A stretch of DNA of 51,536 nucleotides from Haloarcula rubripromontorii (GTDB lineage: Archaea; Halobacteriota; Halobacteria; Halobacteriales; Haloarculaceae): the NCBI RefSeq assembly GCF_001280425.1, contig NZ_LIUF01000011.1:1-51536 (forward strand), in the 5' to 3' direction. The first letter of the stretch is position 1, and every line of letters begins with the position of its first letter. Below are positions 1-27,720 of the stretch, piece by piece. A program made the translations under genes and the position numbers. The notes beneath the pieces are model-generated. The model made no database searches. It was not told where the DNA came from and worked only from the letters and a program-made list of their open reading frames with translations.

Positions 1-9
1 AAGAGACAG
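1..9. other. Sequencing-adapter remnant
   Basis: The first nine bases, AAGAGACAG, equal the last nine bases of the Nextera/Tn5 mosaic-end adapter. They differ from the nine bases that precede the same parA sequence at the other end of the window (51269-51277). I read them as untrimmed adapter, not plasmid DNA. Confidence 0.85.
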
Positions 10-268
10 CAACATGGGACACGAGGTTCTCCTCGTTGACCTCGCTGGAACACAGAACGACCTCGCGACACACTTCGGACTCTCCATCGTCGAGGACGAC
101 GACGCGGATGGCGTCACCATCGATGCCCCGATCTCGGCCGTCTTCGGTGACGACTGGGCGTTCCTCCGAGACAACATCGATGACCTTCTGGATCGGATGA
201 CGTTCCCGACCGACGAGGGGCCGGACCTTATCCCAGCTGATCTCGGGCTCGGTGGCGCAGACAATAAC
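10..268. repeat. Terminal redundancy showing a circular replicon
   Basis: Bases 10-268 recur, as far as I can read without a mismatch, at 51278-51536 in the same orientation, and both copies lie at the same place in the parA reading frame. This is the signature of an assembly that ran once around a circle. Removing the adapter and one copy gives a circle of 51,268 bp. Confidence 0.93.
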
Positions 269-772
269 CTCGCGAACGTCCCACTCGAAGAGCGCTACCA
301 GAAACTCGATGGCTTCGTTGAGGACCTCGTCGCCGACCAGTACGACCTCGTCATCTTCGACCTGCCCGGCAAGGAGGACAACATCGCACTCAACGGGCTC
401 TTCGCTGCTCGGAACGTCGTCGCTCCGCTGAAACCCGGTGCCTTCGAGCGTGACCAGCTCCAAAAACTGGATGCGACGCTGGACGAGATCAGCACTGACC
501 TCGATGTCGACCTCGGGTTGGCGCTAATCATCCCGACGATCATCAGTAGCCAGGAGACCCTCTCGGAGTCGTTCGTCGAGTACGTGACCGAAGAGTACCC
601 TGAGATCGTCGGTGAACCCGTCACCAAGACCGCCGATATCGGGAACAACCAGAACGCCGGTCGGACGCTCTATGCCGTCCCTGACGACGAACTCTATGCG
701 ACCGGGAAGCGAGCCCGTGAGGCGTACAGTGCGAACACTGAGCAACTGCTGACCCAACTCACAGACCGATGA
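11..772 (+). CDS. parA: ParA-family partition ATPase (3' part; 5' part at 51189-51536)
   Basis: This is the C-terminal part of a 283-residue ParA/MinD-superfamily ATPase whose start codon lies at 51189 across the circular junction. ParA proteins bind DNA in an ATP-dependent way and move plasmid copies apart with a ParB-like partner. The Walker A motif is encoded at the far end of the window. Here the Walker B-like strand LVIFDLPG is visible, with Pro and Gly after the Asp as in this family. The internal ATG at 14 is not the true start. The stop overlaps the next gene by ATGA, so the two are translationally coupled. Confidence 0.92.
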   Translation, partial: NMGHEVLLVDLAGTQNDLATHFGLSIVEDDDADGVTIDAPISAVFGDDWAFLRDNIDDLLDRMTFPTDEGPDLIPADLGLGGADNNLANVPLEERYQKLDGFVEDLVADQYDLVIFDLPGKEDNIALNGLFAARNVVAPLKPGAFERDQLQKLDATLDEISTDLDVDLGLALIIPTIISSQETLSESFVEYVTEEYPEIVGEPVTKTADIGNNQNAGRTLYAVPDDELYATGKRAREAYSANTEQLLTQLTDR

Positions 773-1182
773 GTGACACTACTGACGACCGCGACCCTGA
801 AGAACTGCTTGAACAGTCGAAAGAACAGAAACGTCACCGCAGCCAACCGCAACAGGACACCGAATCAGAGGAGCCCTCGCTGGAGGAGTACATCGCCGAC
901 ATCTACGAAGAGCTCGACGCCGGCGAGGTACCAACGAATCTGACGATGCGGGATCAGAACCTTGCAGCACTGATCCGTGGCCTTGACGAGGCCAATCAAC
1001 TCGACGCCGTTGGGGCCGATGTTCGCGAGTATCTCGACAGGGATGGGGTCGACTCGGAGAGTCGTGGGTCAGTTCTGGGCTTGCTCGTTCGGGCAGGACT
1101 TGCTGAGGTTCGTCCAGACCTCATCGAAGCCGGTGAAGCAGGGTACGAGACGTACACCGAACGCCAAGAGACGCAGTTCTAA
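769..1182 (+). CDS. Small acidic partner of ParA (putative partition protein)
   Basis: This gene encodes 137 residues. The first 45 are highly charged, rich in Glu, Gln and Arg, and look disordered; the rest is predicted helical, from about EEYIADIYEELDAG to the end. No HTH or ParB nuclease motif can be recognised. The gene overlaps parA by four bases (ATGA) and sits where plasmid par operons carry their centromere-binding protein, which is the only basis for calling it a partition partner. It could instead be a regulator of ParA. A T-rich stretch follows the stop at 1183-1194. Confidence 0.7.
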   Translation: MSDTTDDRDPEELLEQSKEQKRHRSQPQQDTESEEPSLEEYIADIYEELDAGEVPTNLTMRDQNLAALIRGLDEANQLDAVGADVREYLDRDGVDSESRGSVLGLLVRAGLAEVRPDLIEAGEAGYETYTERQETQF

Positions 1183-1201
1183 TCGGCTCTTTTTGCATCA
1201 C

Positions 1202-1223
1202 ATATCGGTTGTTGTGAATACGG
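1202..1223 (+). repeat. Left copy of a 22-bp inverted repeat
   Basis: This 22-bp block, with core GTTGTGAATACGG, recurs in inverted orientation at 3141-3162 with 20 of 22 positions identical. A TATTC is kept at the same distance inside both copies. It could be a terminal inverted repeat of a 1.96-kb element, or a binding site. No target duplication is visible outside it. Confidence 0.6.
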
Positions 1224-1236
1224 TTTATTTATTCTT

Positions 1237-1261
1237 CTGAACAGCTGAAACGGCTGTTCAG
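1237..1261. terminator. Perfect 9-bp hairpin after the par operon
   Basis: CTGAACAGC and GCTGTTCAG are exact complements separated by seven bases. The hairpin lies 55 bp after the par partner gene. It may end the par transcript or be a centromere (parS-like) site; a single copy argues mildly against the latter. The rest of 1262-1449 shows no convincing gene. Confidence 0.5.
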
Positions 1262-1449
1262 TATGTCTGCGTATTGGACGTCGAGGGTCCTACCAGCTTC
1301 GGATGATGTTCGAAGTGCCGTACACGATGGAGGCCACAACTCTTTCATATCTGCACGAGAGTTCAGACGACGCCCCCTGAAAATCAACAACGTGCTTCAC
1401 AAAAGCAATGACCGTCAGTCCCCTATGTGGAGGAACGGCCTAACCGTCG

Positions 1450-2004
1450 CTACCGGCCGCCGTCCCACTCGTCCCGCAGCAGGCCGTACAGCTCCATGTC
1501 GTGGTACTCGCCGCGGTACCAGGCGGCCTCGCGGCGGGTGCCTTCGTGCTCGAAGCCCAGTGACTCTAGCAGCGCGGCCGAGGCCTCGTTGAAGCTGCCA
1601 GCGCGGGCGTGGATGCGGCGCATGTTGCGGTCTTCGAAGGCGTACCGGACCATCTGGAGGGCGGCGTCGGAGCCGTATCCTTGACTGTGGTGGTCAGGGT
1701 GCACCCAGTAGGCAAGCTCGGCTGACCGCGCGCGACGGGTCTCGTCGGGGCCGTATCGGGACTCCATCAGCGAGACATGGCCGACGGGGTCGCCGTCGAC
1801 GCAGGCCAGACAGTGAACGTCCTCCTCGGCGGTCAGGACGGTCTCGAAGAACTCCTCGGCCAACTCGCCGTTCGTCGGGTTGACGTCCATCGCGGGCCGC
1901 CAGATGCGGGGGTCGTTGATGGCGCGCTGCACGAACGGGACGTCCTCGCGTTCGACCGGCCGGAGGGTCACGGTTTCGCCCTCCAAGAACGTGGGTCCAG
2001 GCAT
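1450..2004 (-). CDS. GNAT-family N-acetyltransferase (RimJ/RimL type)
   Basis: This is a complete acetyltransferase of the RimJ/RimL subgroup, about 184 residues, which moves acetyl from acetyl-CoA to an amine. The fold is recognisable from TLRPVEREDVPFVQ at the N terminus, ELAYWVHPDHHSQGYGSDA (strand 4 and the acetyl-CoA loop, Q-x-x-G-x-G/A-like) and NEASAALLESLGFEHEGTRR near the C terminus. I place the start at 2004 (MPGPTFLEG) rather than nine codons upstream, because family similarity begins there. The substrate cannot be inferred; some relatives modify ribosomal proteins or antibiotics. It stands alone and faces the par operon. Confidence 0.88.
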   Translation of the reverse strand: MPGPTFLEGETVTLRPVEREDVPFVQRAINDPRIWRPAMDVNPTNGELAEEFFETVLTAEEDVHCLACVDGDPVGHVSLMESRYGPDETRRARSAELAYWVHPDHHSQGYGSDAALQMVRYAFEDRNMRRIHARAGSFNEASAALLESLGFEHEGTRREAAWYRGEYHDMELYGLLRDEWDGGR

Positions 2005-2251
2005 AGCTTCGCCTGGTCGGGCGGCCCACAAGGGTCTTGTGTAAACTCATAGTGTGGTGCCATATGACGAGGGCTACGTGACTGCGGAGCCGGTCCTGAA
2101 GACAGGCTGCCCGGAACGGCTATGTCGGTCTTTGTTAGTCCACATCGGAGACACACAGCCAATCCTACCGGCTGGTTCCGCCACATTCGACTGAGCCGAC
2201 CTCACTCGTCGTGCTACATCCCACGTTTGCGCTGACCAACTCCCACGCGAA

Positions 2252-2764
2252 CTATGTAACAGTGTACTCCCAAAGAATTGCAGAGTTCTCACCGATTAAC
2301 GCGCTCGGTGCTCTGCCGTTCTGGCCGTCTTTTCGAACTTCCGCTGGATTCCAGACGACACGGATGGTAGTTCCCGACAGGTCACCGACACCGCCGAGCA
2401 AAATCGACTCTCCGGCTGTCCAGTAGTCCCCTACACCAGACTGATCATTCCCTTCGGTCAGTTTTTCGCCAACCGTTGCGTACCCACCATTTGGGTCCGT
2501 ATCTGGGCCACCGATATCGACCGGCTCTGTCGAGACGATCAGCACCTGATCTGCGCGGATTCTATCGCCGTGCGTGAGCGTAAGTTCAAGTCGCTCTTCA
2601 GAACTATCTTCATCAAGTAATCGTTGCTCAAATCCGGCACTCGGGGCTGGCTGGCTGGCGTCAATAATATCAAGAGCTATTACAGAGACTGTCGCCGCAA
2701 ATATGACTGCCACCGCCGTCATAAGAAGAACCGAGATAACCGACGAGACAGCACGTTTCTCCAT
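2252..2764 (-). CDS. Archaeal type IV pilin-like protein
   Basis: This 170-residue protein starts KRAVSSVISVLLMTAVAVIF, the class III signal region typical of archaeal pilins: a short basic leader followed at once by a hydrophobic helix of about 25 residues. Prepilin peptidase would cut just before the helix. The remainder is polar and contains TLTHGDRIRADQVLI and a GGVGDLSGTTIRVVWNP stretch, typical of the beta-rich head. Pilins assemble into adhesion filaments or act as minor surface subunits. No pilB or pilC gene is present here, so assembly would rely on chromosomal genes. It is clearly more AT-rich upstream than its neighbours. Confidence 0.85.
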   Translation of the reverse strand: MEKRAVSSVISVLLMTAVAVIFAATVSVIALDIIDASQPAPSAGFEQRLLDEDSSEERLELTLTHGDRIRADQVLIVSTEPVDIGGPDTDPNGGYATVGEKLTEGNDQSGVGDYWTAGESILLGGVGDLSGTTIRVVWNPAEVRKDGQNGRAPSALIGENSAILWEYTVT

Positions 2765-2786
2765 GCTACAAAATATAGCTGATTGC

Positions 2787-2796
2787 TTATATATAA
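2787..2796 (-). promoter_or_regulatory. TATA box of the pilin-like gene
   Basis: TTATATATAA lies 23-32 bp upstream of the pilin start codon, the spacing expected for a leaderless haloarchaeal transcript. The surrounding 2765-2960 is very AT-rich compared with the rest of the window. Confidence 0.6.
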
Positions 2797-2976
2797 ATTT
2801 CTGTATCTATCATCTTCTAAATTAATAAATTTAATATATAATAAAACGCTTTGCAGAGTCTATGTTGATTTTTACTAGAAATATAAGATATATAGTCCGT
2901 ACTGACCAATCGGATTTGTCCGGATAAAAGGGTTTCATGCCGAGGCTTTCTTTGGCAAGGCTCTCGGAACTCACAT

Positions 2977-3081
2977 GTGGTTGGAATAGGGACACTCATT
3001 GTTGCAGTTACAATCATTGTGGCGATGACACTGACCCTCGGTCTGTTGCTTCGCCTATTGAGAGATGCTGATGGGCTCTGA
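2977..3081 (+). CDS. Single-span membrane microprotein, copy 1 (34 aa)
   Basis: This 34-codon frame starts with GTG and encodes VGIGTLIVAVTIIVAMTL followed by TLGLLLRLLRDADGL. A second copy at 30042-30146 has an ATG at the same place and the same length. The two differ at ten synonymous codons but only five conservative residues (V/I, A/T), so the frame has been under protein-level selection. It is predicted to be one transmembrane helix with a basic then acidic tail (RLLRDADGL). I do not recognise a family. It is head-to-head with the pilin-like gene, while the other copy follows a surface metalloprotease-like gene. Confidence 0.75.
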   Translation: MVGIGTLIVAVTIIVAMTLTLGLLLRLLRDADGL

Positions 3082-3140
3082 ACAGTCGACTAGTTCACTG
3101 TACTGACTGAAAGCCATCCACAACCTCGCGAATAGTATAG

Positions 3141-3162
3141 CCGTATTCACAACGACTGATAT
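3141..3162 (-). repeat. Right copy of the 22-bp inverted repeat
   Basis: The reverse complement of 3141-3162 matches 1202-1223 at 20 of 22 positions. The rest of 3082-3308 is AT-rich and carries GTATCTGTATAT at 3198-3209, a 12-mer that also overlaps the parA start at 51179-51190. I see no convincing gene between 3082 and 3308. Confidence 0.6.
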
Positions 3163-3308
3163 CGGTAGTCAGTATCTGGAGTTTGCATCCGGCTTGTGTA
3201 TCTGTATATTGTATCTAGATATGCTATTCGACTCTAGTCTACAGATATTCGATATAGCAGTATACAGTTTACCGATGATGACGCTGCTGATCAGATTACC
3301 CCGAGGAC

Positions 3309-4004
3309 TCAGTCGATATCAGCGAACTCGCCAGCCAGTTCGGCATCGACAATGCTGTCGAACCCACACTGTGGACAGGTAATCGACAGGCCGTCGATAG
3401 CCGCCGCCTCGACGCGCTGGAGGACACCCTGACAGATGTGCTTCCTACAGTCAGGACACCGGACCGCCTGAAGAGTCACGGGTTTCGCGTGGCGCAGACA
3501 GTCCTTGCACCCAGAATACGCAGGGACGACCGCGTTGCACCGGGTAATGCGGTACGTAGACCCCTGGTTTCCAGCGCCACAGGCGGGCGCGGCTTCGCCG
3601 TAGGCGGCCGCCTGCGGGTCCGGGAAGTGGTACTTCTCGGCTTTCCCGCCGCTGACGACCACCCACGGAACCCGCTGGTCCAGCACCTCGACGTCGTCGA
3701 CGTCGAACGCCCGACCGTCTTCAGTCCAGTCCGGCGACTCGAGCGCGTACAGCGAGACCTCATGATGGTCGGGATAGCGCACCAGCTCCAGGCCGAACAC
3801 CGCCGATCGAGAATTGAGTCGGAGTACGCGTTTCGATTCGCGGTCATCGGTCGGGTCCTCGATGGCCCGTTCGACAACATCGGTGACGTCCCAGGTGCGT
3901 GTGTCGCCGTTGACCACGAGCAAGTCACCTGCTTCGATATCCTGGATCGTCTCGACGAGCGCCGGGCCGACACCGGCGTCGACGGAATCAGTGACAGCCA
4001 TCAA
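3309..4004 (-). CDS. Multi-zinc-ribbon protein of unknown function
   Basis: About 231 residues. The N-terminal 130 residues are acidic and beta-rich (ALVETIQDIEAGDLLVVNG, VPWVVVSGG). The C-terminal 90 carry several cysteine pairs: a CGAG, then CNAV with GCKDC, then CPDCRKHIC, and finally CPQCGF. Such pairs bind zinc and suggest nucleic-acid or protein binding. I do not recognise a named family. The start is one of two adjacent ATG codons at 4004 and 4001. Its promoter region ends at the insertion sequence that begins at 4033, so upstream control may have been altered by the insertion. Confidence 0.7.
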   Translation of the reverse strand: MMAVTDSVDAGVGPALVETIQDIEAGDLLVVNGDTRTWDVTDVVERAIEDPTDDRESKRVLRLNSRSAVFGLELVRYPDHHEVSLYALESPDWTEDGRAFDVDDVEVLDQRVPWVVVSGGKAEKYHFPDPQAAAYGEAAPACGAGNQGSTYRITRCNAVVPAYSGCKDCLRHAKPVTLQAVRCPDCRKHICQGVLQRVEAAAIDGLSITCPQCGFDSIVDAELAGEFADID

Positions 4005-4032
4005 TCGTCACCCGAAATCGTGTCGGGACATC

Positions 4033-5427
4033 CGTCTTTAGCTAAGAGAGAAACCGCGTGACAGCAGCGGCTTATCGAGGCTTCTTTTCGAGAGGAATGA
4101 GGAGGCGATAGCTGTGTCCAACAGAGCCTCCTCATCGAGAATCATGCGTCGGCTCACTACACTGTTTCCCTCTGAGTTCCTCGAAGAGCACGCCGAGGAA
4201 CTCGGCGTGGTCGAGCGAGAGGGTAAGCTCCAGATTCCTGTCCTCGTGTGGGCGCTCGTGTTCGGCTTCGCCGCAGGCGAGAGCCGAACACTCGCTGGGT
4301 TTAGACGCTGCTACAACGCTACAGCTGACGAACCGATCTCTTCTGGCGGCTTCTATCACCGGTTGACACCGTTACTCGCAGAGTATCTCCGCGACCTCGT
4401 CGAGCGCGGCCTCGACGAAGTCGCTGTCCCTGATGCTGTTGATGCTGATATCGACCGGTTCAGGGACGTGATGATCGCTGATGGAACGGTGTTGCGGTTG
4501 CACGAGTTTCTTTCTGATGAGTTTCAAGCCCGCCACGAGGAGCAGGCTGGAGCGAAGCTCCACCTGCTCCACAACGCTACCGACCAGACCATAGAACGGA
4601 TCGATGTGACTGATGAGAAAACGCACGACAGCGCGCTATTCAAGACAGGATCGTGGCTGCAAGGACGACTGGTTCTGTTTGATCGAGCGTACTTCAAATA
4701 CCGCCGCTTTGCGTTGATCGACGAGAACGACGGCTACTTCGTGAGTCGGCTGAAGCAGAACGCAAATCCGGTGATAACGGCGGAATTACGGGAATGGCGC
4801 GGCCGCGCCATTCCCTTGGAGGGCAAACAGATCCACGATGTGGTCGATGATCTCTCGCGGAAGTACATCGACGTAGAGGTGGAAGCGGAGTTCAAGCGTG
4901 GCCAGTACGAGGGAACCCGGTCGCTGGACACGAAGCGATTTCGCGTCGTCGGCGTCCGCAACGAGGACGCCGACGACTACCACCTATACATCACGAATCT
5001 ACCGAGAGAGGAGTTTCTCCCGGCGGATCTAGCGACGCTGTATCGGTGTCGATGGGAAGTAGAAACGTTGTTCCGTGAGTTGAAGACGCAGTACGAACTG
5101 GACGAATTCGACACGAACAACCCTGATGTCGTGAAGATTCTACTGTACGCAGCGTTGCTGTCACTGCTGGTGAGTCGTGAGTTGTTGGATCTGGTCACTG
5201 AGCAGGCCGACGATGAGATCGTGTTTCCGCCGGAACGCTGGGCGGCGACCTTCCGGTCGCACGCCCAGCTCATCCTTCACGAACTCGGTGAGTACCTCGG
5301 TTACTCGCCACCGCCGTTGTTGGAGCGGCTAATCGAAGATGCCCAGAAAATCCACCAACAACGACCGATCTTACAAGAGACGCTCGCTACCGCTACACAA
5401 CCGAGGTGTGAGTCTTAGCTAAAGACG
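4033..5427 (+). mobile_element. ISH8-like insertion sequence (IS4 family), 1,395 bp
   Basis: The element is bounded by perfect 14-bp terminal inverted repeats, CGTCTTTAGCTAAG at 4033-4046 and its complement at 5414-5427. It contains one intact transposase gene. Length and protein resemble the ISH8 group of haloarchaeal IS4 elements. The flanks, GGACATC on the left and AATAGTG on the right, show no target-site duplication. That is unusual for a simple insertion and fits a later deletion or recombination at one end. Confidence 0.88.
4114..5418 (+). CDS. IS4-family transposase
   Basis: This DDE transposase catalyses cut-and-paste movement of the surrounding element. The first catalytic Asp lies in MIADGTVL, the second in LVLFDRAYF, and the catalytic Glu lies in YRCRWEVETLFRELK. 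That last motif fits the IS4 signature Y-(2)-R-(3)-E-(6)-K exactly. The gene looks intact. It may start with GTG at 4114 or at the internal ATG at 4144 (MRRLTTLFPSEF), where relatives usually begin. The right terminal repeat begins inside its last codons. Confidence 0.92.
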   Translation: MSNRASSSRIMRRLTTLFPSEFLEEHAEELGVVEREGKLQIPVLVWALVFGFAAGESRTLAGFRRCYNATADEPISSGGFYHRLTPLLAEYLRDLVERGLDEVAVPDAVDADIDRFRDVMIADGTVLRLHEFLSDEFQARHEEQAGAKLHLLHNATDQTIERIDVTDEKTHDSALFKTGSWLQGRLVLFDRAYFKYRRFALIDENDGYFVSRLKQNANPVITAELREWRGRAIPLEGKQIHDVVDDLSRKYIDVEVEAEFKRGQYEGTRSLDTKRFRVVGVRNEDADDYHLYITNLPREEFLPADLATLYRCRWEVETLFRELKTQYELDEFDTNNPDVVKILLYAALLSLLVSRELLDLVTEQADDEIVFPPERWAATFRSHAQLILHELGEYLGYSPPPLLERLIEDAQKIHQQRPILQETLATATQPRCES

Positions 5428-5431
5428 AATA

Positions 5432-8400
5432 GTGCGGGGGTTCATCGACGAGGAGATCACTGTCTTCAAGGATAACGGCCTGACGCCCGCCGCCGAGACC
5501 CTCGTCCATGAGGAGTTCCTGCTAGAGGACGAAGCTATCCTGGAAGCGTATCACAACGCCTGTAACGATTTCGCTGAGGAAATTGAGATACTGTTCGATC
5601 GTTCCTCGGCGTACAGCCTCATCGATCCCGATGACGACACCTTCGAGGAACTCTGCGGGATGCTCGACAGTGTTGACGACGAAGTCTGGCGGGCTGATGA
5701 CGTGCTCGGCTGGGTCTACGAATACTACAACGTCAAACTCCTCGACGATCTACGTCGCAAGGGCGACCGCGAAGGGCTCGACCCCGAGGATGTCCCGCCG
5801 GCGAATCAGTTCTACACCCCCCACTGGGTCGTCCGGATGCTCACCGACAACTCCCTCGGAAAGCTCTATCTCGAACACACCGGGGAGCTGCAGGATGTCG
5901 TCGACACCCAGGATTCGTTCGCCCCCGAGGAGCGCAAGAACCGTCCACTCTCACCTGACGAGTCACCCGACATCGCCGACTTCTGTACCTACCTTGTTCC
6001 GAGTGAGGAGGCGGGCGAGCCGACCGACTTCGACCACCCTCGGGAGCTGCGGGTCATCGACCCGGCATGTGGCAGCGGCCACTTCCTCCTCTACGCTTTC
6101 GACGTGCTCGAACGCATCTGGCGCACCGAAACAGACCACCCCAGCGAGCAGATTCCCAGAAAGATTCTGCAGCACAACCTCTACGGCGTCGACCTGGATA
6201 TGCGGGCCTGCCAGCTCGCAGCGTTCAATCTCTACCTCAAGGGTCGCACCCGGGCCGAAGCCGAGGGCGCCGATGGCTTCGACATGCCGGAGGTGGGGAT
6301 CGTCTGTGCCGACGCCTCGATCGCGGAGATCGACGGCGTCGAGGCGGTGTTCGACGAGGTCGCCGGCGATGATCCCGAGGTCCAACAGGCGCTTGAGCGC
6401 ATCCTCGACGCTTTCGAGGAGGTCCACGGTCTCGGTAGCTTGCTCGACGTGCGCGGCACCCTCGGTGACCTGTTCGAAGACGACGCCGACATCGGCGGCA
6501 CACAGCTGACCCTCGGCGACGACCCCCGCGAAAGTCACACACTCGGGCAGGTACTACACAGCCTGCGCGAAGCCGTCGAGGAACATCGGGAGTCGGACTC
6601 GTTCCTCGCGCAGGACCTCCGGAGTTTCGTGCGCCTGCTGGACATTCTGGCCCAGGACTACGACGTGGCGCTGATGAATCCGCCGTATGGAGCACACGGG
6701 CGAATGCCTGATATTGTACAAGAATATGTCGAGGAAAAATACAGTTATAAAGACGAATATTATATTTCATTCTTTGAGGTATGCTCGAATTTACTACCGC
6801 AGAACGGTAGATTGGGTATGCTTGTTCCTCGATCGTTTATGTTTAAGAGCAGTTTCCAATCCTTTAGAGATCAGTTTTTGAATTCGGGGGGAACTATCGA
6901 TTTCTTAGCAGAATTCGGCCTAGGTATACTCGATAACGCTACTGTAAGGACTTCTGGCACGGTTTTAGCGCCGAACACGGAATCTTCCAACCTAGGGACA
7001 TTCATCAGATTACATGATGTTAAATCAGATGAGAAAGAAGAGGCATTCATCCGTAGTTCATTTGAAGGAGAGTTTGACGACGTTAAAAGACGATATTCAG
7101 TAAGTGCTGATGAATTCACTCAGGTTCCAGGGAGCCCAATTAGTTACTGGACCCCAGATGAAGTCCGAGAACTACATCAATCCCATGAAAAGTTAGATGC
7201 GGATACTGCAGGCATTGAGGGAGGATCTGTCTCAACAATCGCAACGGGTTTGCAGACGGGAGATAATCCGCGATTCATTCGGAAACACTGGGGATCCCCA
7301 GATACAGATGAATTCAAGCCCTTAGCCAAAGGTGGGGAAGATGCCTGGGTAGTCCCATCAGTGACCACAAAAATAAACTGGCGGGATGGAGGGGTTGAGA
7401 TGCAACGGATTGACTCTGCCCGATTCCAGAACCCACAGCACTACGGGAAAGAGGGTCTTACTTGGAATCAAGTAAAGGAGACAGGACGCCGGTTCGGGTT
7501 TTACCCAGAAGGAGGGATTTTCGACCAAACCGGATCGATGGTCTTCCCTGAAGACTATCTTTCACCATGGAAACTGATGGGGGTTCTAAATACAGACTTA
7601 TATCATGCTCTGTTCCTCTCTTTAACGCCCGAACGGCACTGGAATCCCGGAGATGTTGCTAGAATTCCTTGGGTCTTCGATCAACAAGACTCACGAATTG
7701 CTGAGGTTACCAAATCTCAGTATCAGGAAGTCATTAGTCTAAGATCCAGTAATCCGACTAGCCCGTATTACGTTGGCCCGCGAATTTTACCCACCCGATC
7801 TAGCTCTGGATGGTTCTACAACCATGAACACGTTCGTAATCGGAAGATCATACAGAACATTACATTTCAAGAAGTAGCTCCAAGGGTGTCTCTGCAGGAG
7901 GCAGCTCGTCAATCTATAGGATCCAGGGTAGAGATTAACAAGCAACTGGAAGAACTCGCAGAAAAAGCAGATGAAATAGTATTCGAGGATTTAGATATTA
8001 CAGACGGCACACAAAATCAAATCCGACAAGAAATCTTCCTCCGAACCGCTGAAAGCCCCGAAGATCGCGAAGTCATGGGCCTAGAGTCTGTCCCCGAGAA
8101 CCCAGACAACATCGACAAGCAGGTCAAGGACCTCGTCCATCACTTCGCAATGGAGGCCGTCCGAGAGGAAAACGACGGCATTGTCCCACTACACGGCGTC
8201 GACGACCAGCCGAACATGCTGGACCGCATCGTCGAGCGCTTCGAGAACGCCTACGGTGAGCACGCCGAGGACCGACTGGTCGAGGTCGACGAAATTCTCG
8301 GTGCCGAGTCCGCCGCCGAGGAGGCCTATCCCAACCTCCGGCGGTGGATCGCCGAGGACCTGTTCAACTACCACGTAAGCCGGATGGAAAATACGCCCAT

Positions 8401-9445
8401 CGTCTGGAAGCTGACAACCGAGCGTCTACTCGCCGACTCCACCGGCGAGGGGTTCGCGTGCTTCGTCGACTACCACAGCCTCGACTCGGGGCTATTCGAC
8501 CGTCTCTCAAACCAATACCTAGAACCGCGGAAGGCCGAACTCCGAGAGCAGCGCAGTGCCGCGAACCGCCGCCGGAGCGATGATTCTCTGTCCGCCAGCG
8601 AGCAAGCCGAGGCAGCCGAACAGTACGAGCGCTGTGCAAGCGGACTCGACCAGATCGCCGTCTTCGAGGACGTCATCCAGGATCTCGGGAGCGTAGACGA
8701 ACGCGAGTTCGAAGAATCGGATCGTGCGCTGGTGAAGGACCTCGCGCCGAAAGTCGCCGCGTTCTGCGAGGAGACCCGCGAGCGCGTTGACACGCTCGGG
8801 GAGCTGCACGAGCGCAAGGACTCGACGTGGTTCAAGGACACCTTCTCGGAGAAATTCTGGGAGACCGTCGACGAGTGGCGCGACGAGTGGCTCGACGCGC
8901 TTGCGGAACTCGAAGGTGCCTGTGAAGCATACGCCAAGCCGACCGACGAGCCTGTAGAAGCACACCTTGCTGACCTGTTCGACTACTTCAACTGGCGGCT
9001 CAAGGGCTCAGACCACTACTCCAGTTCAGGCATCCTGTTCATGACTTACTACTTCGAGCGTGAAGGTTCCGACCTGCTCGACGAGAACGGACAACCCCAC
9101 GATCATCTCTCCGAAGACGAACGCCGCCTCGCTTCGTTGGCGATGGGGCTTGACGATGTCTCCATCGTTGATGAGGAGTACCTCGAAGCAGTCGCCGACG
9201 ACGAGGGCGTGGACGACATCGAGGAGCTGCCGCCGCTGGCCGAGTTCAAGGCACTAGCCGAAGAGATCGACGACCGCTGCCAGACAATCGACAAGCGCGT
9301 TCCTTCGGACTGGGCTGACCGCGCGATCTCAGAGGTAACGACTGCTGGCTATCAGCCCAACCACAAGCACGGCGTCGAAATCAACATCACACCGCTCGCC
9401 GACGCCGAGATTGTCCCGAAAACCGTCGACGATGACGTCCTGTAA
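5432..9445 (+). pseudogene. pglX: PglX (BREX adenine methyltransferase), 5'-truncated by the IS
   Basis: PglX is the N6-adenine DNA methyltransferase of BREX defence; it marks host DNA and is needed for phage exclusion. Visible parts, counted from the GTG at 5432: QFYTPHWVVR near 128, SAM motif I DPACGSGHF at 210-218, catalytic NPPY at 416-419, then a large recognition and C-terminal region. The open frame begins four bases after the IS right end, and the IS supplies an in-frame TAA at 5420-5422. Family proteins have a longer N-terminal domain, so the true start has been lost; perhaps a hundred residues are missing (estimate). Bases about 6690-8040 are strikingly AT-rich against GC-rich flanks. 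It may still be translated from the GTG, but function is doubtful. Confidence 0.85.
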
Positions 9446-9447
9446 CA

Positions 9448-11613
9448 ATGCCTGCAACCAAAACCCTCCCACAGTGCGCTGAAGATGCCATCGAGACTGC
9501 CATCGACGAGGCGGCCGACGAAGATCCGGTCGTGCTTTGGTGGGACGACGGTGGGTACCTTCGCGATATCGTCCAAGGAGTCAGCCACTCACTGGGCTGT
9601 GAGTTCTATGCGGCCGAGCAAACGCCACTCGAGCTGCGCGCCGACGCGCCCCGCGACCGAACCGTCTGGTACGTACCACAGACCCACAGCGACGACGTAG
9701 ACTGGTTCAAGGATGTCGAAAACACTGGCGGGGTCATTGAAGCGCACATCGGTAAGCTTGCGGCACGCTGCTTCGAGAACGAGCGTATCCAGGCCGCTTC
9801 GATCCGCACGGCCTACGAAGACGTCGGCGAAGGTGATCGCGAACAGGTCGCCAAGACGCTCTTCCAGGAGCTCAACGGCGAAGGGGGCCTTCCGACGCTC
9901 CAGGGGCTCCAAACGAAGATCGTCCTCGATGGCCATGAGGACCCGGTTCAGTTCGTCCTCGAACACGGCGCCGAGAACCTTCCCGACGAGACCAGCGATC
10001 TACTACAAATTCGGGACCTGTTGGTCGACAACGGCGTCGCGGCCGTCGACGGCGTCACCGACGAGGACGTTCTCGTGACACGAACACGACGTTGGGCGGT
10101 CGCCGAATGGCTCGTCGAGGAGGGACTCGATCCGTCGCTCCTCGACGCCGAATACCGACCCGAGTCCAGTTCGGGCCTCGGAATCTCTCGACCTGAACTC
10201 CAGTCGCTACTGAGCAAGGTCGATCCAGAACGCGCCGAAGAGCTAGCGCACGTGTACCTCGATCCAGACGCCCAGTTCTGGCACGATATCCTTCGATCCT
10301 ACGACGACCCCTGGGGACTGGCCGACTGTCCCGTCGACGCCTCGCTCGAACACGAACTCTGGAACGAGTGGCTGCAAGCGTTCCACGACGGGGAGTACGA
10401 GACGTGCACGACCCGAGCGGCCACACGCTACCAGCGTCTCGAAACGACCTACGGCGACGTCCCGTGGACGAGCGTCTGGAACCAGGCTGTCGAGGTCGCC
10501 AAACTCGCGCACGAACTCGAAACGTGGGAAGAGCGCGGCGATACGACCGACATCGTCGACCTCTACGGTGACGTCGACGATGGGACCTGGCAGATCGACA
10601 ACGCCGTGTTCAATCTCATCATCTCGGGCGAGCCCGAACAAGGGCTCCCAGAGGAGCATCCCGCGACGGCGAGTCTCGACGACCTGCGCACGTCGCTGAC
10701 TGAGTCACGCTACCTCGACTACCTCAGCGATCTCGGCGAACTGGTCGTCGACCAGATCGAGGCAGGTTCACCGTTTGTCGGCGAAAACTACGCCCACCAG
10801 TTCTTCGACCAGGAGCAAGAACACCTCCAGAGTGGCCAGAGCGTTGCGCTGTTCATCGTCGACGCGCTGCGTTTCGACCTCGCTCACGAACTGGCGGAGT
10901 CTGTCCGTCGTGAACTCCCCGGCCTCGAAGTCGACGAGACTGCTTGGGTCGGAACACTCCCCTCGGATACCGAGTTTGGGAAGGCAGCACTCACACCCGG
11001 GAGCAAGTTCAGCTTCAACATCGAACTCGACGACGGGGAACTCGTTCCGGAACGCAACGGCCGCGAGATCACTAACTACCAGCGCGAGAAGATGCTGAAG
11101 GACGATGGCTGGAGTTACATCATGCAAAGCGAGGACGACGAGTCGGGGTGGAGCAACACTCGCGTTGCGTACTACTGGAACGACCTCGACAAAGCTGGTG
11201 AAAAAGAGCTAACCGACTTCGAGGCGCTGTTCAGCGACCGTATCGAGAAGATATCGGACATCATCTGCGAGAAGCTCGACCAGGGAGAGTGGGACCGCGC
11301 ATACATCCTCGCCGACCACGGTTTTGTCTCGCTTCCCCAGAGCATCGATCTTGATGGCATCTATCCACCGGACGAGGCGGAGCAGGTGACGCGCCGTTGG
11401 GTGGCCGGAACAAACATCGACGAGGATGCACCTGGCGTCCTCCTCGACGAGAACACTCATCTCGGCTACCTTGACGATGACACGAAAATTAGTGTCCTCG
11501 CAGATCCAATTCAGCGCTTCCGCAATCAGGGACTTCCCGATGCTCGCTTCTACCACGGTGGGGTTCTCCCCCAGGAATTCGTGCTCAACTTCGTCACGAT
11601 CACGCAGGAATGA
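9448..11613 (+). CDS. pglZ: PglZ, BREX alkaline-phosphatase-superfamily protein
   Basis: This 721-residue protein carries a C-terminal PglZ domain, a member of the alkaline phosphatase superfamily and a hallmark of every BREX system. Metal-site motifs are visible: DALRFD at 472-477 and ADHGF with D623 and H624. The N-terminal 450 residues are helical and family-specific. PglZ is required for BREX activity in the systems tested, and a nuclease activity has been reported for some members. The gene starts two bases after the pglX stop and is followed after six bases by the helicase, so all three share a transcript. It appears intact, unlike pglX. Confidence 0.93.
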   Translation: MPATKTLPQCAEDAIETAIDEAADEDPVVLWWDDGGYLRDIVQGVSHSLGCEFYAAEQTPLELRADAPRDRTVWYVPQTHSDDVDWFKDVENTGGVIEAHIGKLAARCFENERIQAASIRTAYEDVGEGDREQVAKTLFQELNGEGGLPTLQGLQTKIVLDGHEDPVQFVLEHGAENLPDETSDLLQIRDLLVDNGVAAVDGVTDEDVLVTRTRRWAVAEWLVEEGLDPSLLDAEYRPESSSGLGISRPELQSLLSKVDPERAEELAHVYLDPDAQFWHDILRSYDDPWGLADCPVDASLEHELWNEWLQAFHDGEYETCTTRAATRYQRLETTYGDVPWTSVWNQAVEVAKLAHELETWEERGDTTDIVDLYGDVDDGTWQIDNAVFNLIISGEPEQGLPEEHPATASLDDLRTSLTESRYLDYLSDLGELVVDQIEAGSPFVGENYAHQFFDQEQEHLQSGQSVALFIVDALRFDLAHELAESVRRELPGLEVDETAWVGTLPSDTEFGKAALTPGSKFSFNIELDDGELVPERNGREITNYQREKMLKDDGWSYIMQSEDDESGWSNTRVAYYWNDLDKAGEKELTDFEALFSDRIEKISDIICEKLDQGEWDRAYILADHGFVSLPQSIDLDGIYPPDEAEQVTRRWVAGTNIDEDAPGVLLDENTHLGYLDDDTKISVLADPIQRFRNQGLPDARFYHGGVLPQEFVLNFVTITQE

Positions 11614-11619
11614 CCGCTA

Positions 11620-14526
11620 ATGACTAACTTCGATCCCGGTGATACGGTCCTACTCAATGGACGCACTGCCGAGGTCATTAAGACCTACTCCGTCGGCGAT
11701 CTCGACTACCTCCGGGCCTACGTCGAAGACGCCGGCGTGAAAACCGTCTGTATCGACGACGTCGAGGTCGAACCCAAACGCGATCAGCTTGGGGAACTGC
11801 GCTCGGCGTCAGCCGAACAGCTACATCCCGACCACGAGGCTGTCTCGGCCGAGTGGTTCGATCTTCGTTCGCAAGCCCTTCAGCTTCAGATCGCCCACGA
11901 ACAGGGGCAGCTACTGAGTATCTCGAATTCGCTGGTCCGCCTCGAACCGTATCAGCTCGCCGCAGTCAACTGGGTGATGCAGAAGCTGCGCCAACGTGCG
12001 CTCATCGCCGACGACGTCGGCCTCGGGAAGACCATCGAAGCGGGACTCATCCTCAAAGAGCTTACCGCTCGAAATCGTGCGGACCGGGTCCTGTTCGTCG
12101 TCCCTGCCCACCTCCAGAAGAAGTGGATTCGTGATATGAACCGCTTCTTCGACATCGACCTCACGCCGGCCGACCGGCAGTGGGTCGAGGGTGAACGCCG
12201 GCGACTCGGTGAGGAGGCCAACATCTGGGACCAAGACCACCAACAGATGGTCACCAGTCAGGCCTTCCTCCGACAGGACGAGTTCCAGCCGGCCCTCGAG
12301 GAAGCGTTCTGGGACGTCGTGATAGTCGACGAGGCGCACAAGGCCGCCAAACGGGGTGAGTCCCCCAGCAAGACGTCGAAGATGGTCGAACGGGTCGCCG
12401 GTAATTCCGACTCGCTCCTCCTGCTCAGCGCGACGCCACACGACGGCAAGGGCGAGGCGTTCCGCTCGCTCATCGAGTACATCGACCCGTTCCTCGTCGC
12501 CGAAGACCAGGACCTCTCCAAGGAAGCCGTTGACCGCGTGATGATCCGCCGCGGGAAGCAGACGCTGTACGACGATGACGGCGAGCGCATCTTCCCCGAC
12601 CGTGAGGTCAACACCGTTCCCGTGGAGATGACCCACGATGAGCGGCAGTTCTATCGGGCCGTTACTGACTACGTCCAGAACGTCTATAACCGCTCCGAGA
12701 AGCTGAACGAGCCAGCGGTCGGGTTCGCCATGGCGCTGATGCAGAAACGTCTTGTCAGCAGTATCGGCGCCATCCAAGCGACACTGAGTCGTCGTTTGGG
12801 CGACCTCGTCGACGAGCAGTCGACCTCCACGAACCTCTCGGAGGAGGCGTCCGCGTACCTCGACGGCGAGGATCTCGACGAAGAGGACAAACAACGAGCC
12901 GAGGAGGAACTCTCGGCGCTGACCGTCACCGAGAGCGATGCGCAACTCGAAGAGGAGATCGAAACGCTCCGCGACCTCGTCTCCCTCGCCGAGGGTATCT
13001 CCGTCGACTCGAAGGCCCAGAAGGTCCGCCGCTACATCCAGCAGCTGCTGGAAGAGCAACCCGACGAGAAACTCCTCCTGTTCACCGAGTATCGCGACAC
13101 ACTGGACTACCTACTCGACCTTGTGAAGGACGAACCCTGGGCCGACGAGATCCTCGTCATCCACGGTGACGTCGACAAGGAGGAACGCGCCCGCATCGAG
13201 GAGGAGTTCAACCACGGCCAGTCCCGGCTACTGTTTGCGACCGACGCGGCGAGCGAGGGGATTGACCTCCAGCACAGTTGCCACATCATGGTGAACTACG
13301 AGCTGCCGTGGAACCCGAACCGCCTCGAGCAGCGGATCGGCCGGCTCCACCGCTACGGGCAGGACAAGGAGGTCAAGGTCTGGAACTTCACGTTCGAGGA
13401 CACTCGTGAGGGCGAGATCTTCGACATGCTCCAGAACAAGGTCGAGAACATCCGCGGCAAACTCGGCAACACGGCTGACGTGTTGGGGATGCTCGATGAC
13501 ATCAACGTCGACTCGCTCATCATGGAGTCCATCCAGAACGACGAACCGGCGAGTGCAACCAAGGAGGAACTCGAGGAACTCATCGACGAGCGTCAACGCA
13601 CGCTCCAGGAGTGGTACGAACGCAGCCTCATCGACACGAGCACGTTTGACCAGGAGAGCCGGGAGAAGATTCAGGAGGTGATGGACGAGTCCGAGGACGT
13701 CTACGGGACGGAGGCCGACATCCACGAGTTCGTCGAGCGCGGCGTCGAGGCGCTCGGTGGCGACGTCGAAAAAGCCGGGAGCAATCTCTACAGGGCCCAG
13801 CTGCCACGCTCTCTACGGCAAGGAACTGACGAGGAGTACGGGCCGTTCACGTTCAGCCGAGACTTCGCGATGGACCACGATGGTATTGACTACGTCTCTC
13901 CCGATGATGATCTGGTCCAGCGGCTAATGCAGCAAATCCTGGATAGTGAGCACGGAGATGTTGGGCTAAAGCTCCTCCCGTTCGTCGACGAACCGGGGAT
14001 TGCGTATAACTATCGCGTGACGTTCGAGGACGGGACGGGCGAGGTCATCCGGGAAGATATGATCCCTGTGTATGTCGATGCCCGCCATCATGACCCCCGG
14101 CAGCGGATGGGTCAGCGTGTTGTTCAGGGTGACAGTATCAAAGGGTCGCCCGACGCGGACCGTGTGCGATCGCTGATACAGAGTCAGGATCAGCTGCGAG
14201 AAGCTGGGGACCGGTACATCAGCCAGCAGGTCACATCTTTGCGGGAAGAACTACACGAGCGCCGCCGAGAGGAGACCCAGCAAGAACTAGATGACCTCGA
14301 GGAGTATGCGGAGGCTGAACGCCAGCGAATCGAGGAGTTCATCGAGAACTATGAACGGAAAGCAGAGGCTGGGTCAAATATGGATATCGCAATCCGTGGT
14401 CAACAAGAACGGCTCAACAAACTTGAGCAGCGTATCGAAGACCGGCGCCAAGAATTGCAGCGGAAGGCTCGGGTCATCTCACTTGCGCCAGAGGTGGAGA
14501 ACGTTTGCTTTGCTCTCCCGGTCTAA
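11620..14526 (+). CDS. brxHII: BrxHII-type SNF2-like helicase of BREX
   Basis: A 968-residue superfamily 2 helicase. Walker A is DDVGLGKT at 131-138, the DEAH box is VDEAH with D237-H240, motif III is LLLSATPHDG, and motifs V and VI are ATDAASEGIDL and QRIGRLHRYGQ with R575. A long charged coiled-coil region follows (EELHERRREETQQELDDL). This is the large helicase found beside pglX and pglZ in type 3 and type 5 BREX. Type 5 is the form described mainly from haloarchaea, which fits this context. The gene looks complete. It closes the operon; the upstream brxA, brxB and brxC expected for type 5 are absent from the circle. Confidence 0.9.
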   Translation: MTNFDPGDTVLLNGRTAEVIKTYSVGDLDYLRAYVEDAGVKTVCIDDVEVEPKRDQLGELRSASAEQLHPDHEAVSAEWFDLRSQALQLQIAHEQGQLLSISNSLVRLEPYQLAAVNWVMQKLRQRALIADDVGLGKTIEAGLILKELTARNRADRVLFVVPAHLQKKWIRDMNRFFDIDLTPADRQWVEGERRRLGEEANIWDQDHQQMVTSQAFLRQDEFQPALEEAFWDVVIVDEAHKAAKRGESPSKTSKMVERVAGNSDSLLLLSATPHDGKGEAFRSLIEYIDPFLVAEDQDLSKEAVDRVMIRRGKQTLYDDDGERIFPDREVNTVPVEMTHDERQFYRAVTDYVQNVYNRSEKLNEPAVGFAMALMQKRLVSSIGAIQATLSRRLGDLVDEQSTSTNLSEEASAYLDGEDLDEEDKQRAEEELSALTVTESDAQLEEEIETLRDLVSLAEGISVDSKAQKVRRYIQQLLEEQPDEKLLLFTEYRDTLDYLLDLVKDEPWADEILVIHGDVDKEERARIEEEFNHGQSRLLFATDAASEGIDLQHSCHIMVNYELPWNPNRLEQRIGRLHRYGQDKEVKVWNFTFEDTREGEIFDMLQNKVENIRGKLGNTADVLGMLDDINVDSLIMESIQNDEPASATKEELEELIDERQRTLQEWYERSLIDTSTFDQESREKIQEVMDESEDVYGTEADIHEFVERGVEALGGDVEKAGSNLYRAQLPRSLRQGTDEEYGPFTFSRDFAMDHDGIDYVSPDDDLVQRLMQQILDSEHGDVGLKLLPFVDEPGIAYNYRVTFEDGTGEVIREDMIPVYVDARHHDPRQRMGQRVVQGDSIKGSPDADRVRSLIQSQDQLREAGDRYISQQVTSLREELHERRREETQQELDDLEEYAEAERQRIEEFIENYERKAEAGSNMDIAIRGQQERLNKLEQRIEDRRQELQRKARVISLAPEVENVCFALPV

Positions 14527-14567
14527 TCGATTCCTGAGCTGGACGGGAGCGCTTCGCTGCCGGCGCG

Positions 14568-14801
14568 TCAGACCGACTTTCGTGAAGGCTTCTCGTAAAC
14601 GTCGACGGAGACCACACGCTCGGGTGGGTAGTACGAGACGGGTACGTGGCCACTGTCGAGTTCGCCACCGTGCGACGGGCCGATGCATCTAATCCATCCC
14701 TCGTCCACAATCTCCCAGTCGTCGTATTCGCGCTCGATCTCGCCCTCCCCGTGCTTGTCCACGAGGTGGACGATCACACCCTCGGTTCTGTCGTCTGCCA
14801 T
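14568..14801 (-). CDS. Small hypothetical protein
   Basis: About 77 residues from MADDRTEGVIVHLVDKHG at 14801, an internal ATG preferred over the one 27 codons upstream because the upstream part is basic and unlike its neighbours. The sequence is acidic and beta-rich, with GWIRCIGPSHGGE and VPVSYYPPERV, and may form a small barrel. I do not recognise a family. It faces the end of the BREX operon, 41 bp away. Confidence 0.6.
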   Translation of the reverse strand: MADDRTEGVIVHLVDKHGEGEIEREYDDWEIVDEGWIRCIGPSHGGELDSGHVPVSYYPPERVVSVDVYEKPSRKSV

Positions 14802-14880
14802 ATTCGACGTATCGAAGAGGTGTTTGATTAGCGTTCTGTAAACGTGGCTGGTTCGTCCTTTTGAACGGTCAATCCCCTCC

Positions 14881-15144
14881 AAAACAGGGGATCTCGCACG
14901 GACGGTCTCGTAATCAGGACGCCATCGACTACCTGGCCCTCGGCGACAGAATGCGCATACTAGAAAGTGGTTCTCCCGTTAATGAGCCGATTCCGGAAAT
15001 TCCCGGAAATCTGGGTTTTCCACAATTAGGAATCGCATGACAGCAGGGGGATACGACAAGTAAAATGGAACTGAATGCATGGTTTCCGGAAACAACCCAA
15101 TCACGTTTTTAGTACTAGCCAGAAAACCAGTCTATCAAGCAACG
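14881..15144. other. Putative replication origin upstream of orc
   Basis: This gene-free stretch before the orc gene contains paired near-palindromes: TTCCGGAA at 14991-14998 and TTCCCGGAA at 15000-15008, then TTTCCGGAAAC at 15083-15093. The same pair recurs at 20744-20762 and 24001-24020, always near replication genes. Haloarchaeal origins usually lie next to orc1/cdc6 and carry repeats ending in GGAAAC, so an origin role is plausible. The published full-length ORB consensus is not evident. Confidence 0.55.
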
Positions 15145-16191: not shown

Positions 16192-16878
16192 TCAGGAACT
16201 GAACTCGCCGAGGCCCGATTGCTCGTGGTCCAGCGGCTCGATGACCTGAGAATCGTCGTTGCCGGGGTTGTTGACCCGCGTCGAAATCTCGTAGGCGTCC
16301 AGATCATCCTTCGGATACGGCTGGCACAGTTCCTTGCGGGTTTCCGGGTCTGCGGCGAGCCAGTCGGATTCGGCGTCCCTCGGGAGGACGACCGCCATCC
16401 GATCGTGGATGGAGTTCATCAACTCGTTCGGCTCCGTCGTGAGAATCGTGACGCACGAAATTGTCTCGTCGTCGCCCTCCCAGACGTCCCAGAGGCCAGC
16501 CATCGCGAACGCTGGGTCGTCCTCGCGATAGATTCGGTAGGGCTGTTTCGCCCCGCCGTTTGGTGCTTTCCACTCGTAGAAGCCCGACGAGGGGACGAGA
16601 CAAGGGCGAGATTCCCACGCCCGCTGGAAGACGCGTTTCTCGTCGGCAGTCTCGGAGCGAGCGTTGATGATGCCCCCCTCGGGCTCGTCCGCCCAGAACG
16701 GAATCAGCCCCCAGTGGTAGGCGTCGATCTCGTCTTGAGCCTCGTTCGTGATGATGTGGAGGTCGTCACCAGGTGCGATGTTGTATCGGGGTGTGTACCC
16801 GCCGTCCGTGACGACCTCGGCGTCGAAACGGGCCTCAAGGTCGGCCTGGTCGATGAAGAGCGAGTTTCGACCACACAT
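16192..16878 (-). CDS. SRAP / HMCES-type abasic-site peptidase
   Basis: SRAP proteins (human HMCES, E. coli YedK) form a covalent bond between Cys2 and abasic sites in single-stranded DNA and so protect forks. The start at 16878 puts Cys at position 2 (MCGRNSL), which the chemistry demands; longer starts would bury it. Conserved blocks are visible: YNIAPGD, HWGLIPFWAD, IINARSET, SSGFYEWK with the catalytic Glu, and HDRMAVVL with the catalytic His. At about 228 residues it has the usual length. It converges on orc, with 18 bp between the stops. Its place in the replication region fits fork protection. Confidence 0.93.
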   Translation of the reverse strand: MCGRNSLFIDQADLEARFDAEVVTDGGYTPRYNIAPGDDLHIITNEAQDEIDAYHWGLIPFWADEPEGGIINARSETADEKRVFQRAWESRPCLVPSSGFYEWKAPNGGAKQPYRIYREDDPAFAMAGLWDVWEGDDETISCVTILTTEPNELMNSIHDRMAVVLPRDAESDWLAADPETRKELCQPYPKDDLDAYEISTRVNNPGNDDSQVIEPLDHEQSGLGEFSS

Positions 16879-16971
16879 ACATCCTGATCCAACTGGGAGA
16901 GTCTTCAACGTATTTGAAAATGTGAAGGGCTGGTTCTGAGGCCCCTTCGTTTGATGGTAGATTTGGGATGA

Positions 16972-17685
16972 TTGGCAAGTACAGAGGTTCTATACAACAG
17001 AGGAGGCTTCTATGGAAAACAGATAAACGGCACTTCTCTACTGACAACCTACAAAACTATTTCACCATTACATCCGATTGGTGGAAGCATGAAACGGGTG
17101 TTCTTCGACAAGATAGATTCTGTGGGTACATTCCCAGATAACAGAATCAAGATGGATATCATCTTCCAGGATAGTAACGGGAATGAGTATGTCTGGACGC
17201 CGAAGTGGGAGGAGGTGATGAGTATATACGCTGAGTCAGAGAGAGTAGAGGAAATGAATCTGGCAGGCGGAGAGTGGTTGGAGGAGTTGAAGGAAAAGAA
17301 GCAGTTCAGTGACGAGGTGCTGGATGAACTGGCAGAGGTTATCGCTGACGGACGTAGTACGGATGAGATAGCTGATTTCTTCGAGATAGTTGGATTTGAC
17401 GCGGATGAAATGAGGTACAATTTAAGCCATGATGATCCGTTGCGGAGTAAGGCTGAGGGCCATAGTAATCGCGTTTATTTTGCTAAAGAGAAGTTGCAAG
17501 AGCTGAACAGCGAGGATTACCGATATGTTGTGCAGATTGTTCAGAAGGCCGCGGATCCTAAGCAGTATATCGGCGAGCAGGAGAAGCATCAAGAAGTGGT
17601 AGAGAAGTTGAATACGGCTTTAGAGTTTGAAAATCTCCGTGTTACGGAGGATGGGCGGGTTCTTCCGATAGAAAAGGACGGTTGA
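16972..17685 (+). CDS. Hypothetical protein with a PH-like N-terminal region
   Basis: About 237 residues. The N-terminal 90, with LTTYKTISPLHPIGGSMKRV and IIFQDSNGNEYVWTPKW, look like a small beta-barrel such as a bacterial PH-like domain; the rest is helical and acidic. It is much more AT-rich than its neighbours, a sign of separate acquisition. The start is uncertain: a TTG at 16972 keeps the whole beta region, whereas the ATG at 17089 would cut it, so I prefer the longer form. Function unknown. Confidence 0.65.
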   Translation: MASTEVLYNRGGFYGKQINGTSLLTTYKTISPLHPIGGSMKRVFFDKIDSVGTFPDNRIKMDIIFQDSNGNEYVWTPKWEEVMSIYAESERVEEMNLAGGEWLEELKEKKQFSDEVLDELAEVIADGRSTDEIADFFEIVGFDADEMRYNLSHDDPLRSKAEGHSNRVYFAKEKLQELNSEDYRYVVQIVQKAADPKQYIGEQEKHQEVVEKLNTALEFENLRVTEDGRVLPIEKDG

Positions 17686-17788
17686 ATCCTTCCCCTTCGT
17701 GTGTGTAAGACTCGCAAGCTTACGTACCGGCTATTGGTATGTGGCCAAGAGGATTTTTACAGAGCCGAAAAGCCTCTGGATCGTGCGA

Positions 17789-27512: not shown

Positions 27513-27720
27513 ATAATGGACCAAGACTTCCGAGCTTTATTTTATTGTGGATATCATAAAACATTGATATGTAATCCAAAATTTACGTTGGTGATGATCT
27601 TTTCTGCGAACTCTAAAAATTACCACTATTTGTTATATATTAAGCGTGTGCTATTATTATGGGTATGGCGAATATGATATCGTACCAAGTTTTATATGGT
27701 TTTCTGATAGGGAAGGTTGT

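What the first reader, a model, noticed from the sequence alone, without database searches (positions are those of the whole stretch)
6690..8040. AT-rich block inside pglX marks a swapped recognition domain
Base composition changes sharply just after the NPPY motif and returns near 8040. The 5' and 3' thirds are GC-rich, like pglZ and the helicase. The block covers the part of PglX expected to read the DNA target. This suggests that the specificity of the BREX methyltransferase was changed by recombination, as in type I restriction systems.
Basis: partly seen in the sequence, partly recalled or inferred. Interest (0 to 1): 0.65.

Follow-up and report, generated by a model that had tools for sequence, protein, structure and literature searches.

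The report
Swappable specificity block in archaeal BREX methyltransferase
The AT-rich middle of this salt-loving archaeon's phage-defence methyltransferase gene is a replaceable "which DNA to read" block that is exchanged between otherwise similar genes; the AT-richness marks the block in almost all relatives rather than one recent swap, and in this genome a mobile element has cut off the start of the gene and two core partner genes are missing.

Summary
The composition block is real. GC falls from 62% to 45% (change points 6704-8038), and third-position GC (GC3) from 0.79 to 0.40 (6686-8071), starting just after NPPY (6677-6688). It covers the methyltransferase tail, the target-recognition domain and the spacer helices of a BREX-5 PglX.

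"Swapped recognition domain" holds for the family. Block and flank trees reject each other. Against the backbone neighbours tested, this gene's block is at chance identity at synonymous sites; the flanks are not. That is replacement, not fast protein evolution.

The AT-richness does not date a swap here: GC3 is below both flanks in 61 of 65 relatives, equally at invariant amino acids. It is a lasting property of the cassette, not explained.

The locus is probably a BREX remnant. The donor and present target are unknown; the closest cassette found is 53% identical.

The parts
5432..9445 (+). pglX (BREX-5 adenine methyltransferase), 1337 aa, missing the first ~102 aa of its relatives
   Evidence: ORF; PADLOC PglX profile matched from position 104 to its end; nearly all full-length relatives carry about 102 or more extra N-terminal residues
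5432..6691 (+). conserved GC-rich 5' backbone (GC3 0.79): end of N-terminal domain and methyltransferase motifs I-IV
   Evidence: 92% aa identity to closest backbones; 81% DNA identity to G198 ending abruptly near 6692
6677..6688 (+). NPPY, catalytic motif IV (residues 416-419), last invariant stretch before the block
   Evidence: translation; invariant in 29 aligned sequences
6692..8071 (+). exchangeable AT-rich cassette (residues 421 to about 880)
   Evidence: GC change points 6704-8038 and GC3 6686-8071; pair-identity history switches at residue 420/421 and between 875 and 910
6692..7150 (+). cassette part 1: methyltransferase tail after motif IV
   Evidence: phmmer alignment to 9ewz/8c45, with domain borders from PMC11341690 and PMC11842806
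7151..7678 (+). cassette part 2: target-recognition domain (about residues 574-749; Salmonella PglX 662-849)
   Evidence: same alignment; model matches BrxX/PglX best in the PDB
7679..7999 (+). cassette part 3: spacer helices (about residues 750-856; Salmonella PglX 850-960), least conserved part
   Evidence: long helices in the model; mean identity 0.29 among 65 relatives
8072..9442 (+). conserved GC-rich 3' backbone (C-terminal domain)
   Evidence: 83% DNA identity to G198 resumes at 8021 and runs to 14527
9448..11613 (+). pglZ (BREX-5 phosphatase-like protein)
   Evidence: Pfam PglZ; PADLOC PglZ full length
11620..14526 (+). brxHII helicase
   Evidence: PADLOC BrxHII full length; 94.6% aa identity to G198
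4029..5431 (+). insertion sequence whose right end abuts the first remaining codon of pglX
   Evidence: two further complete identical copies (C1, C3) and several partial ones in the genome; common ends in all copies; homology to other pglX loci begins at 5431
4114..5418 (+). transposase of that insertion sequence (DDE_Tnp_1)
   Evidence: Pfam

Best explanation
The block is a specificity cassette: about 460 codons comprising the methyltransferase tail after NPPY, the target-recognition domain and the spacer helices. It is exchanged by recombination in the conserved flanks between haloarchaeal BREX-5 pglX genes, giving the same methyltransferase backbone a new DNA target. Shown: the block has a different history from both flanks in the family, fixed edges, and much deeper divergence than the flanks in this gene. 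Inferred: homologous recombination in the flanks as the route (including between the two pglX copies many BREX-5 operons carry), and change of target as the consequence. The low GC is a long-standing feature of these cassettes. In this genome an insertion-sequence event removed the start of pglX, and brxB/brxC are not found, so the enzyme is probably no longer used for BREX defence (inferred).
For: (1) In 65 PglX, pair-identity correlation is 0.89 between N and C flanks but 0.32-0.43 between block parts and flanks; the three block parts correlate 0.61-0.73 with each other, with the switch at residue 420/421 and between 875 and 910. (2) The block tree shares 2 of 62 splits with either flank tree; AU tests reject both flank trees on block data (p 9e-5, 5e-4) and the block tree on flank data. 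(3) 120 pairs with N>=88% and C>=75% identity: block <=60% in 113, none between 60 and 75%, >=75% in 7. (4) Cassettes are shared across distant backbones: G249/G079b N69 T75 C49; G167/G337 N80 T81 C68; G005b/G246 N78 T83 C64. (5) Fourfold sites, window vs G364/G329b/G198: N 0.67/0.58/0.49 (chance 0.37/0.43/0.36), block 0.24/0.25/0.26 (chance 0.25/0.25/0.27); N vs block Fisher p 9e-11, 7e-7, 4e-4. In three near-vertical pairs the block is not faster at these sites than the N flank. (6) Two pglX of one operon (G029): most flank bins 81-99% DNA identity, block about 32-68%. (7) Best solved homologues are BrxX/PglX; base-reading residues mapped in PMC11341690, including a loop in the methyltransferase domain (591-600), fall inside the block by alignment.
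Against: No donor found: the nearest cassette (G032) is 53% identical, so this gene's own exchange is old or from an unsampled source. Block data do not reject window + G198, one of its closest backbones, as sisters (p 0.62), though they reject window + G329b (p 1e-9) and a clade of the window with four backbone neighbours (p 5e-27). N and C flank trees also differ significantly from each other, to a lesser degree. The near-vertical control cassettes are GC-rich (GC3 about 0.7), unlike this one. No flanking repeats or silent cassette were found in the locus, and only one pglX in the genome. Changed target specificity is untested.
Confidence: 0.85

Rival explanations
1. The block is vertically inherited and evolves fast under diversifying selection for new targets; no exchange is needed.
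For: It covers the recognition domain, the most variable part of BrxX in bacteria (PMC11842806). Window and G198 cassettes may be sisters.
Against: Synonymous sites in the block are at chance while flanks are above chance. Block identity is bimodal among pairs with similar flanks. Cassettes are shared between distant backbones. Trees are incompatible.
Confidence: 0.07
2. The AT-rich block marks one recent import into this gene from a low-GC organism.
For: GC3 0.40 against 0.79 with sharp edges. Low-GC backbones (G032, G046, G090) have cassettes of similar GC3, and the nearest cassette is in low-GC G032.
Against: GC3 of the block is below both flanks in 61 of 65 relatives, and equally low at invariant residues. 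No close donor (53% at best).
Confidence: 0.1
3. The low GC of the block is forced by amino-acid composition or by the speed of amino-acid change.
For: First and second codon positions are also lower in the block (0.47 against 0.53-0.54).
Against: With amino acids matched, GC3 in the block is 0.38 against 0.79 expected from this gene's own flanks, and 0.37 against 0.81 at positions >=95% conserved in the family; family means 0.50 against 0.71.
Confidence: 0.03

Closest known systems
BREX type 5 of haloarchaea (PglX, PglZ, BrxHII)
   Same: PglX, PglZ and BrxHII profiles matched along their length; same gene order as single-pglX relatives
   Different: First ~102 codons of pglX are missing and brxB/brxC are not found in this genome; eight of eight relatives searched have brxC
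BREX type 1 PglX/BrxX (Salmonella 8c45, E. coli 9ewz)
   Same: Methyltransferase, recognition domain, spacer and C-terminal region align; recognition domain reported as most variable (PMC11842806) and diverging between Salmonella and E. coli HS (PMC9009780)
   Different: About 20% identity; haloarchaeal BREX-1 pglX genes show only a mild GC3 dip without a sharp step
Domain movement / recognition-domain exchange in Type I S and Type III M genes (PMC3983042)
   Same: Recognition segment has a history separate from conserved flanks and moves between genes
   Different: Recognition domain sits inside the methyltransferase protein; the exchanged unit includes part of the methyltransferase domain and the spacer; no flanking repeats seen here
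Phase-variable pglX (stated for BREX in PMC11341690)
   Same: The variable gene is pglX, not the other BREX genes
   Different: No inverted repeats in 5000-15000 and no second pglX in the genome, so no switch in cis

Membership tests
BREX type 5 | PglX, PglZ and BrxHII of this subtype in one operon | tested here: met
BREX type 5 | brxB and brxC upstream of pglX | tested here: not met
   brxC and brxB of G198 give no hit in G000; the brxC query hits 8 of 8 relatives; brxB had no positive control
BREX type 5 | full-length PglX | tested here: not met
   First ~102 residues replaced by an insertion sequence; no convincing match to the missing N-terminus elsewhere in the genome (best E 0.098)
Gamma-class N6-adenine methyltransferase | motif I (GSG) and motif IV (NPPY) present | tested here: met
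   DPACGSG at 210-216 and NPPY at 416-419; Eco57I and N6_Mtase Pfam matches
Exchangeable recognition-domain cassette | segment with a history incompatible with both flanks | tested here: met
Exchangeable recognition-domain cassette | deeper synonymous divergence inside than outside between close backbones | tested here: met
Exchangeable recognition-domain cassette | exchange changes the methylated motif | not testable with these tools
   No methylome data available
Invertible (phase-variable) specificity gene | inverted repeats, silent cassettes or recombinase beside the gene | tested here: not met
   No inverted repeats in 5000-15000; single pglX in the genome

The most novel reading that the evidence does not exclude
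Haloarchaeal BREX-5 specificity cassettes form their own low-GC gene pool that is shuffled, with fixed edges (just after NPPY and after the spacer helices), among GC-rich pglX backbones, and the two pglX genes of many BREX-5 operons act as a donor-acceptor pair that renews phage-defence specificity while gene conversion keeps the backbones alike.
Probability: 0.3. Interest if true: 0.6.

Novelty: new variant of a known kind. Interest (0 to 1): 0.45.

Why it matters
It gives a natural set of interchangeable BREX specificity modules with defined borders, and so a direct way to learn which residues read which motif in an archaeal phage-defence system. It also shows that a sharp composition step inside a gene need not date a recent transfer. 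I found no description of cassette exchange in BREX-5 in the paper library searched, which is incomplete.

Tried and rejected
A genome-contig scan with PglX found no confirmed relative. A viral-contig scan for the cassette found none. A silent cassette or invertible repeats in the locus: none. Amino-acid composition as the cause of low GC3: rejected. Fast synonymous evolution of the block: not seen in three near-vertical pairs. The structure model had modest confidence (mean pLDDT 59, pTM 0.48), so domain borders rest on sequence alignment to solved BrxX/PglX and published borders, not on the model. A search for the donor of the window's cassette failed: best 53-54%. The Goldfarb 2015 and Tschitschko 2015 papers were not held.

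Full report
What was claimed. The finding reports an AT-rich block at 6690-8040 inside pglX and reads it as a recognition domain swapped by recombination.

Observation. pglX is 5432-9445 on the + strand, 1337 aa, followed by pglZ (9448-11613) and brxHII (11620-14526); PADLOC profiles for all three match strongly. The best single GC block in pglX is 6704-8038 (0.446 inside, 0.618 outside; log-likelihood ratio 53 against a maximum of 12.8 in 60 codon shuffles). On third positions it is 6686-8071 (0.40 against 0.79). NPPY lies at 6677-6688.

What the block encodes. By sequence the best solved relatives are E. coli BrxX and Salmonella PglX, and the same entries lead a fold search with a modest-confidence model. 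Using the published borders of Salmonella PglX (methyltransferase 227-661, recognition domain 662-849, spacer helices 850-960; PMC11341690), the block corresponds to the methyltransferase tail after motif IV (residues about 421-573), the recognition domain (574-749) and the spacer helices (750-856). The residues altered to change specificity in that paper (684-838, plus a loop at 591-600 in the methyltransferase domain) fall inside the block by this alignment. So the block is larger than a recognition domain alone.

Is it exchanged? I collected 65 near-complete BREX-5 PglX from haloarchaeal genomes, the window's own included. Against the closest backbones, identity is about 92% before the block, 46-47% inside and 79% after. 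With G198 the DNA identity is 81% to about 6692, low inside, and 83% from 8021 to 14527. Across all pairs, N and C flank identities correlate at 0.89, while the three parts of the block correlate with the flanks at 0.32-0.43 and with each other at 0.61-0.73. In a 35-residue scan the block departs from the N flank exactly between residues 420 and 421 and returns between 875 and 910. The block tree shares 2 of 62 splits with either flank tree, and AU tests reject the flank trees on block data and the reverse. The flank trees also differ from each other, but with far smaller likelihood gaps. Among 120 pairs with similar flanks, the block is either at most 60% identical (113) or at least 75% (7), with nothing between. 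Some cassettes are closer than their backbones (G249/G079b N69 T75 C49), and two pglX in one operon (G029) have similar flanks and unrelated blocks.

Replacement or fast evolution? Fourfold-degenerate sites decide. Window against G364, G329b and G198: 0.67, 0.58 and 0.49 in the N flank (chance 0.37, 0.43, 0.36), but 0.24, 0.25 and 0.26 in the block (chance 0.25, 0.25, 0.27). Selection on amino acids does not do this. In three near-vertical pairs the block is no faster at such sites than the N flank, although those cassettes are GC-rich. For this particular gene the exchange is old or its donor unsampled: the nearest cassette, G032, is 53% identical. The block data reject a clade of the window with four backbone neighbours (p 5e-27) and with G329b (p 1e-9), but not window with G198 alone (p 0.62). 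I cannot say when, or from whom.

Why AT-rich? It is nearly so: block GC3 is below both flanks in 61 of 65 (means 0.70, 0.50, 0.70). It tracks the flanks only partly (correlation 0.58, slope 0.52, against 0.93 and 0.94 between the two flanks). The deficit is the same at invariant amino acids (window 0.37 observed, 0.81 expected from its own flanks), so it belongs to the DNA segment, not to changing residues. Haloarchaeal BREX-1 pglX genes show only a mild dip without a step. A separate low-GC cassette pool would explain this, but that is a hypothesis.

State of the locus. An insertion sequence at 4029-5431, with further copies in the genome, ends at the first remaining codon of pglX, where homology to other pglX loci also begins. 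Nearly all full-length relatives have about 102 or more further N-terminal residues. The missing N-terminus has no convincing match elsewhere in G000, and brxC has none, while the same brxC query hits all eight relatives tested. brxB also gave no hit, without a positive control. In E. [quoted passage not shown] So BREX function here is probably lost, unless the truncated enzyme acts alone. The copies of this insertion sequence elsewhere carry 10-12 bp target duplications when flanks are paired. The window's left flank pairs with the right flank of the copy on contig C3, and the pglX side has no partner. Either recombination between copies or an assembly misjoin lies at this point; in both cases the missing genes were not found.

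Verdict. Recognition-domain variability in PglX is known for BREX type 1 (PMC11842806, PMC9009780), and exchange of such domains is known in Type I and III systems (PMC3983042). The defined cassette with fixed edges and standing low GC in archaeal BREX-5 is a new variant of that.

Noticed in passing
4029-5431: Insertion sequence abutting pglX; its left flank (CGTGTCGGGA) matches the right flank of the copy at G000:C3:509388-510790, so window 1-4028 and pglX are joined by IS recombination or by misassembly; the pglX-side flank has no partner among the copies.
   Followed up: partly
L051 (G000:C1:599719-601122): A second copy of the same IS also has mismatched target duplications: its flanks pair with the ends of contigs C7 and C8.
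   Followed up: no
L038, L039, L040, L042, L043, L044, L045: Many BREX-5 operons carry two pglX genes on either side of pglZ; in G029 the two share similar flanks but have unrelated specificity blocks.
   Followed up: partly
5432-5656 (residues 1-75): The first ~75 residues of PglX follow a third history, uncorrelated with either the rest of the N flank (0.15) or the block (about 0).
   Followed up: no
L041 (G051, Halorhabdus tiamatea plasmid): pglX is split near query residue 100 by an IS66-family insertion.
   Followed up: no
L037 (G080) and L047 (G200): Truncated pglX pieces 90-91% identical to the window's N flank, ending about 20 residues after NPPY (G080) and at query residue 271 (G200); both genomes keep brxC.
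   Followed up: partly
L147 (Halobacterium sp. BOL4-2 plasmid): Genes annotated as NucS-domain endonuclease and Kiwa KwaB-like protein lie between the presumed brxC and pglX of a BREX-5 operon.
   Followed up: no
2600-3200, 16850-18200, 26360-28640: Other AT-rich stretches in the window.
   Followed up: no
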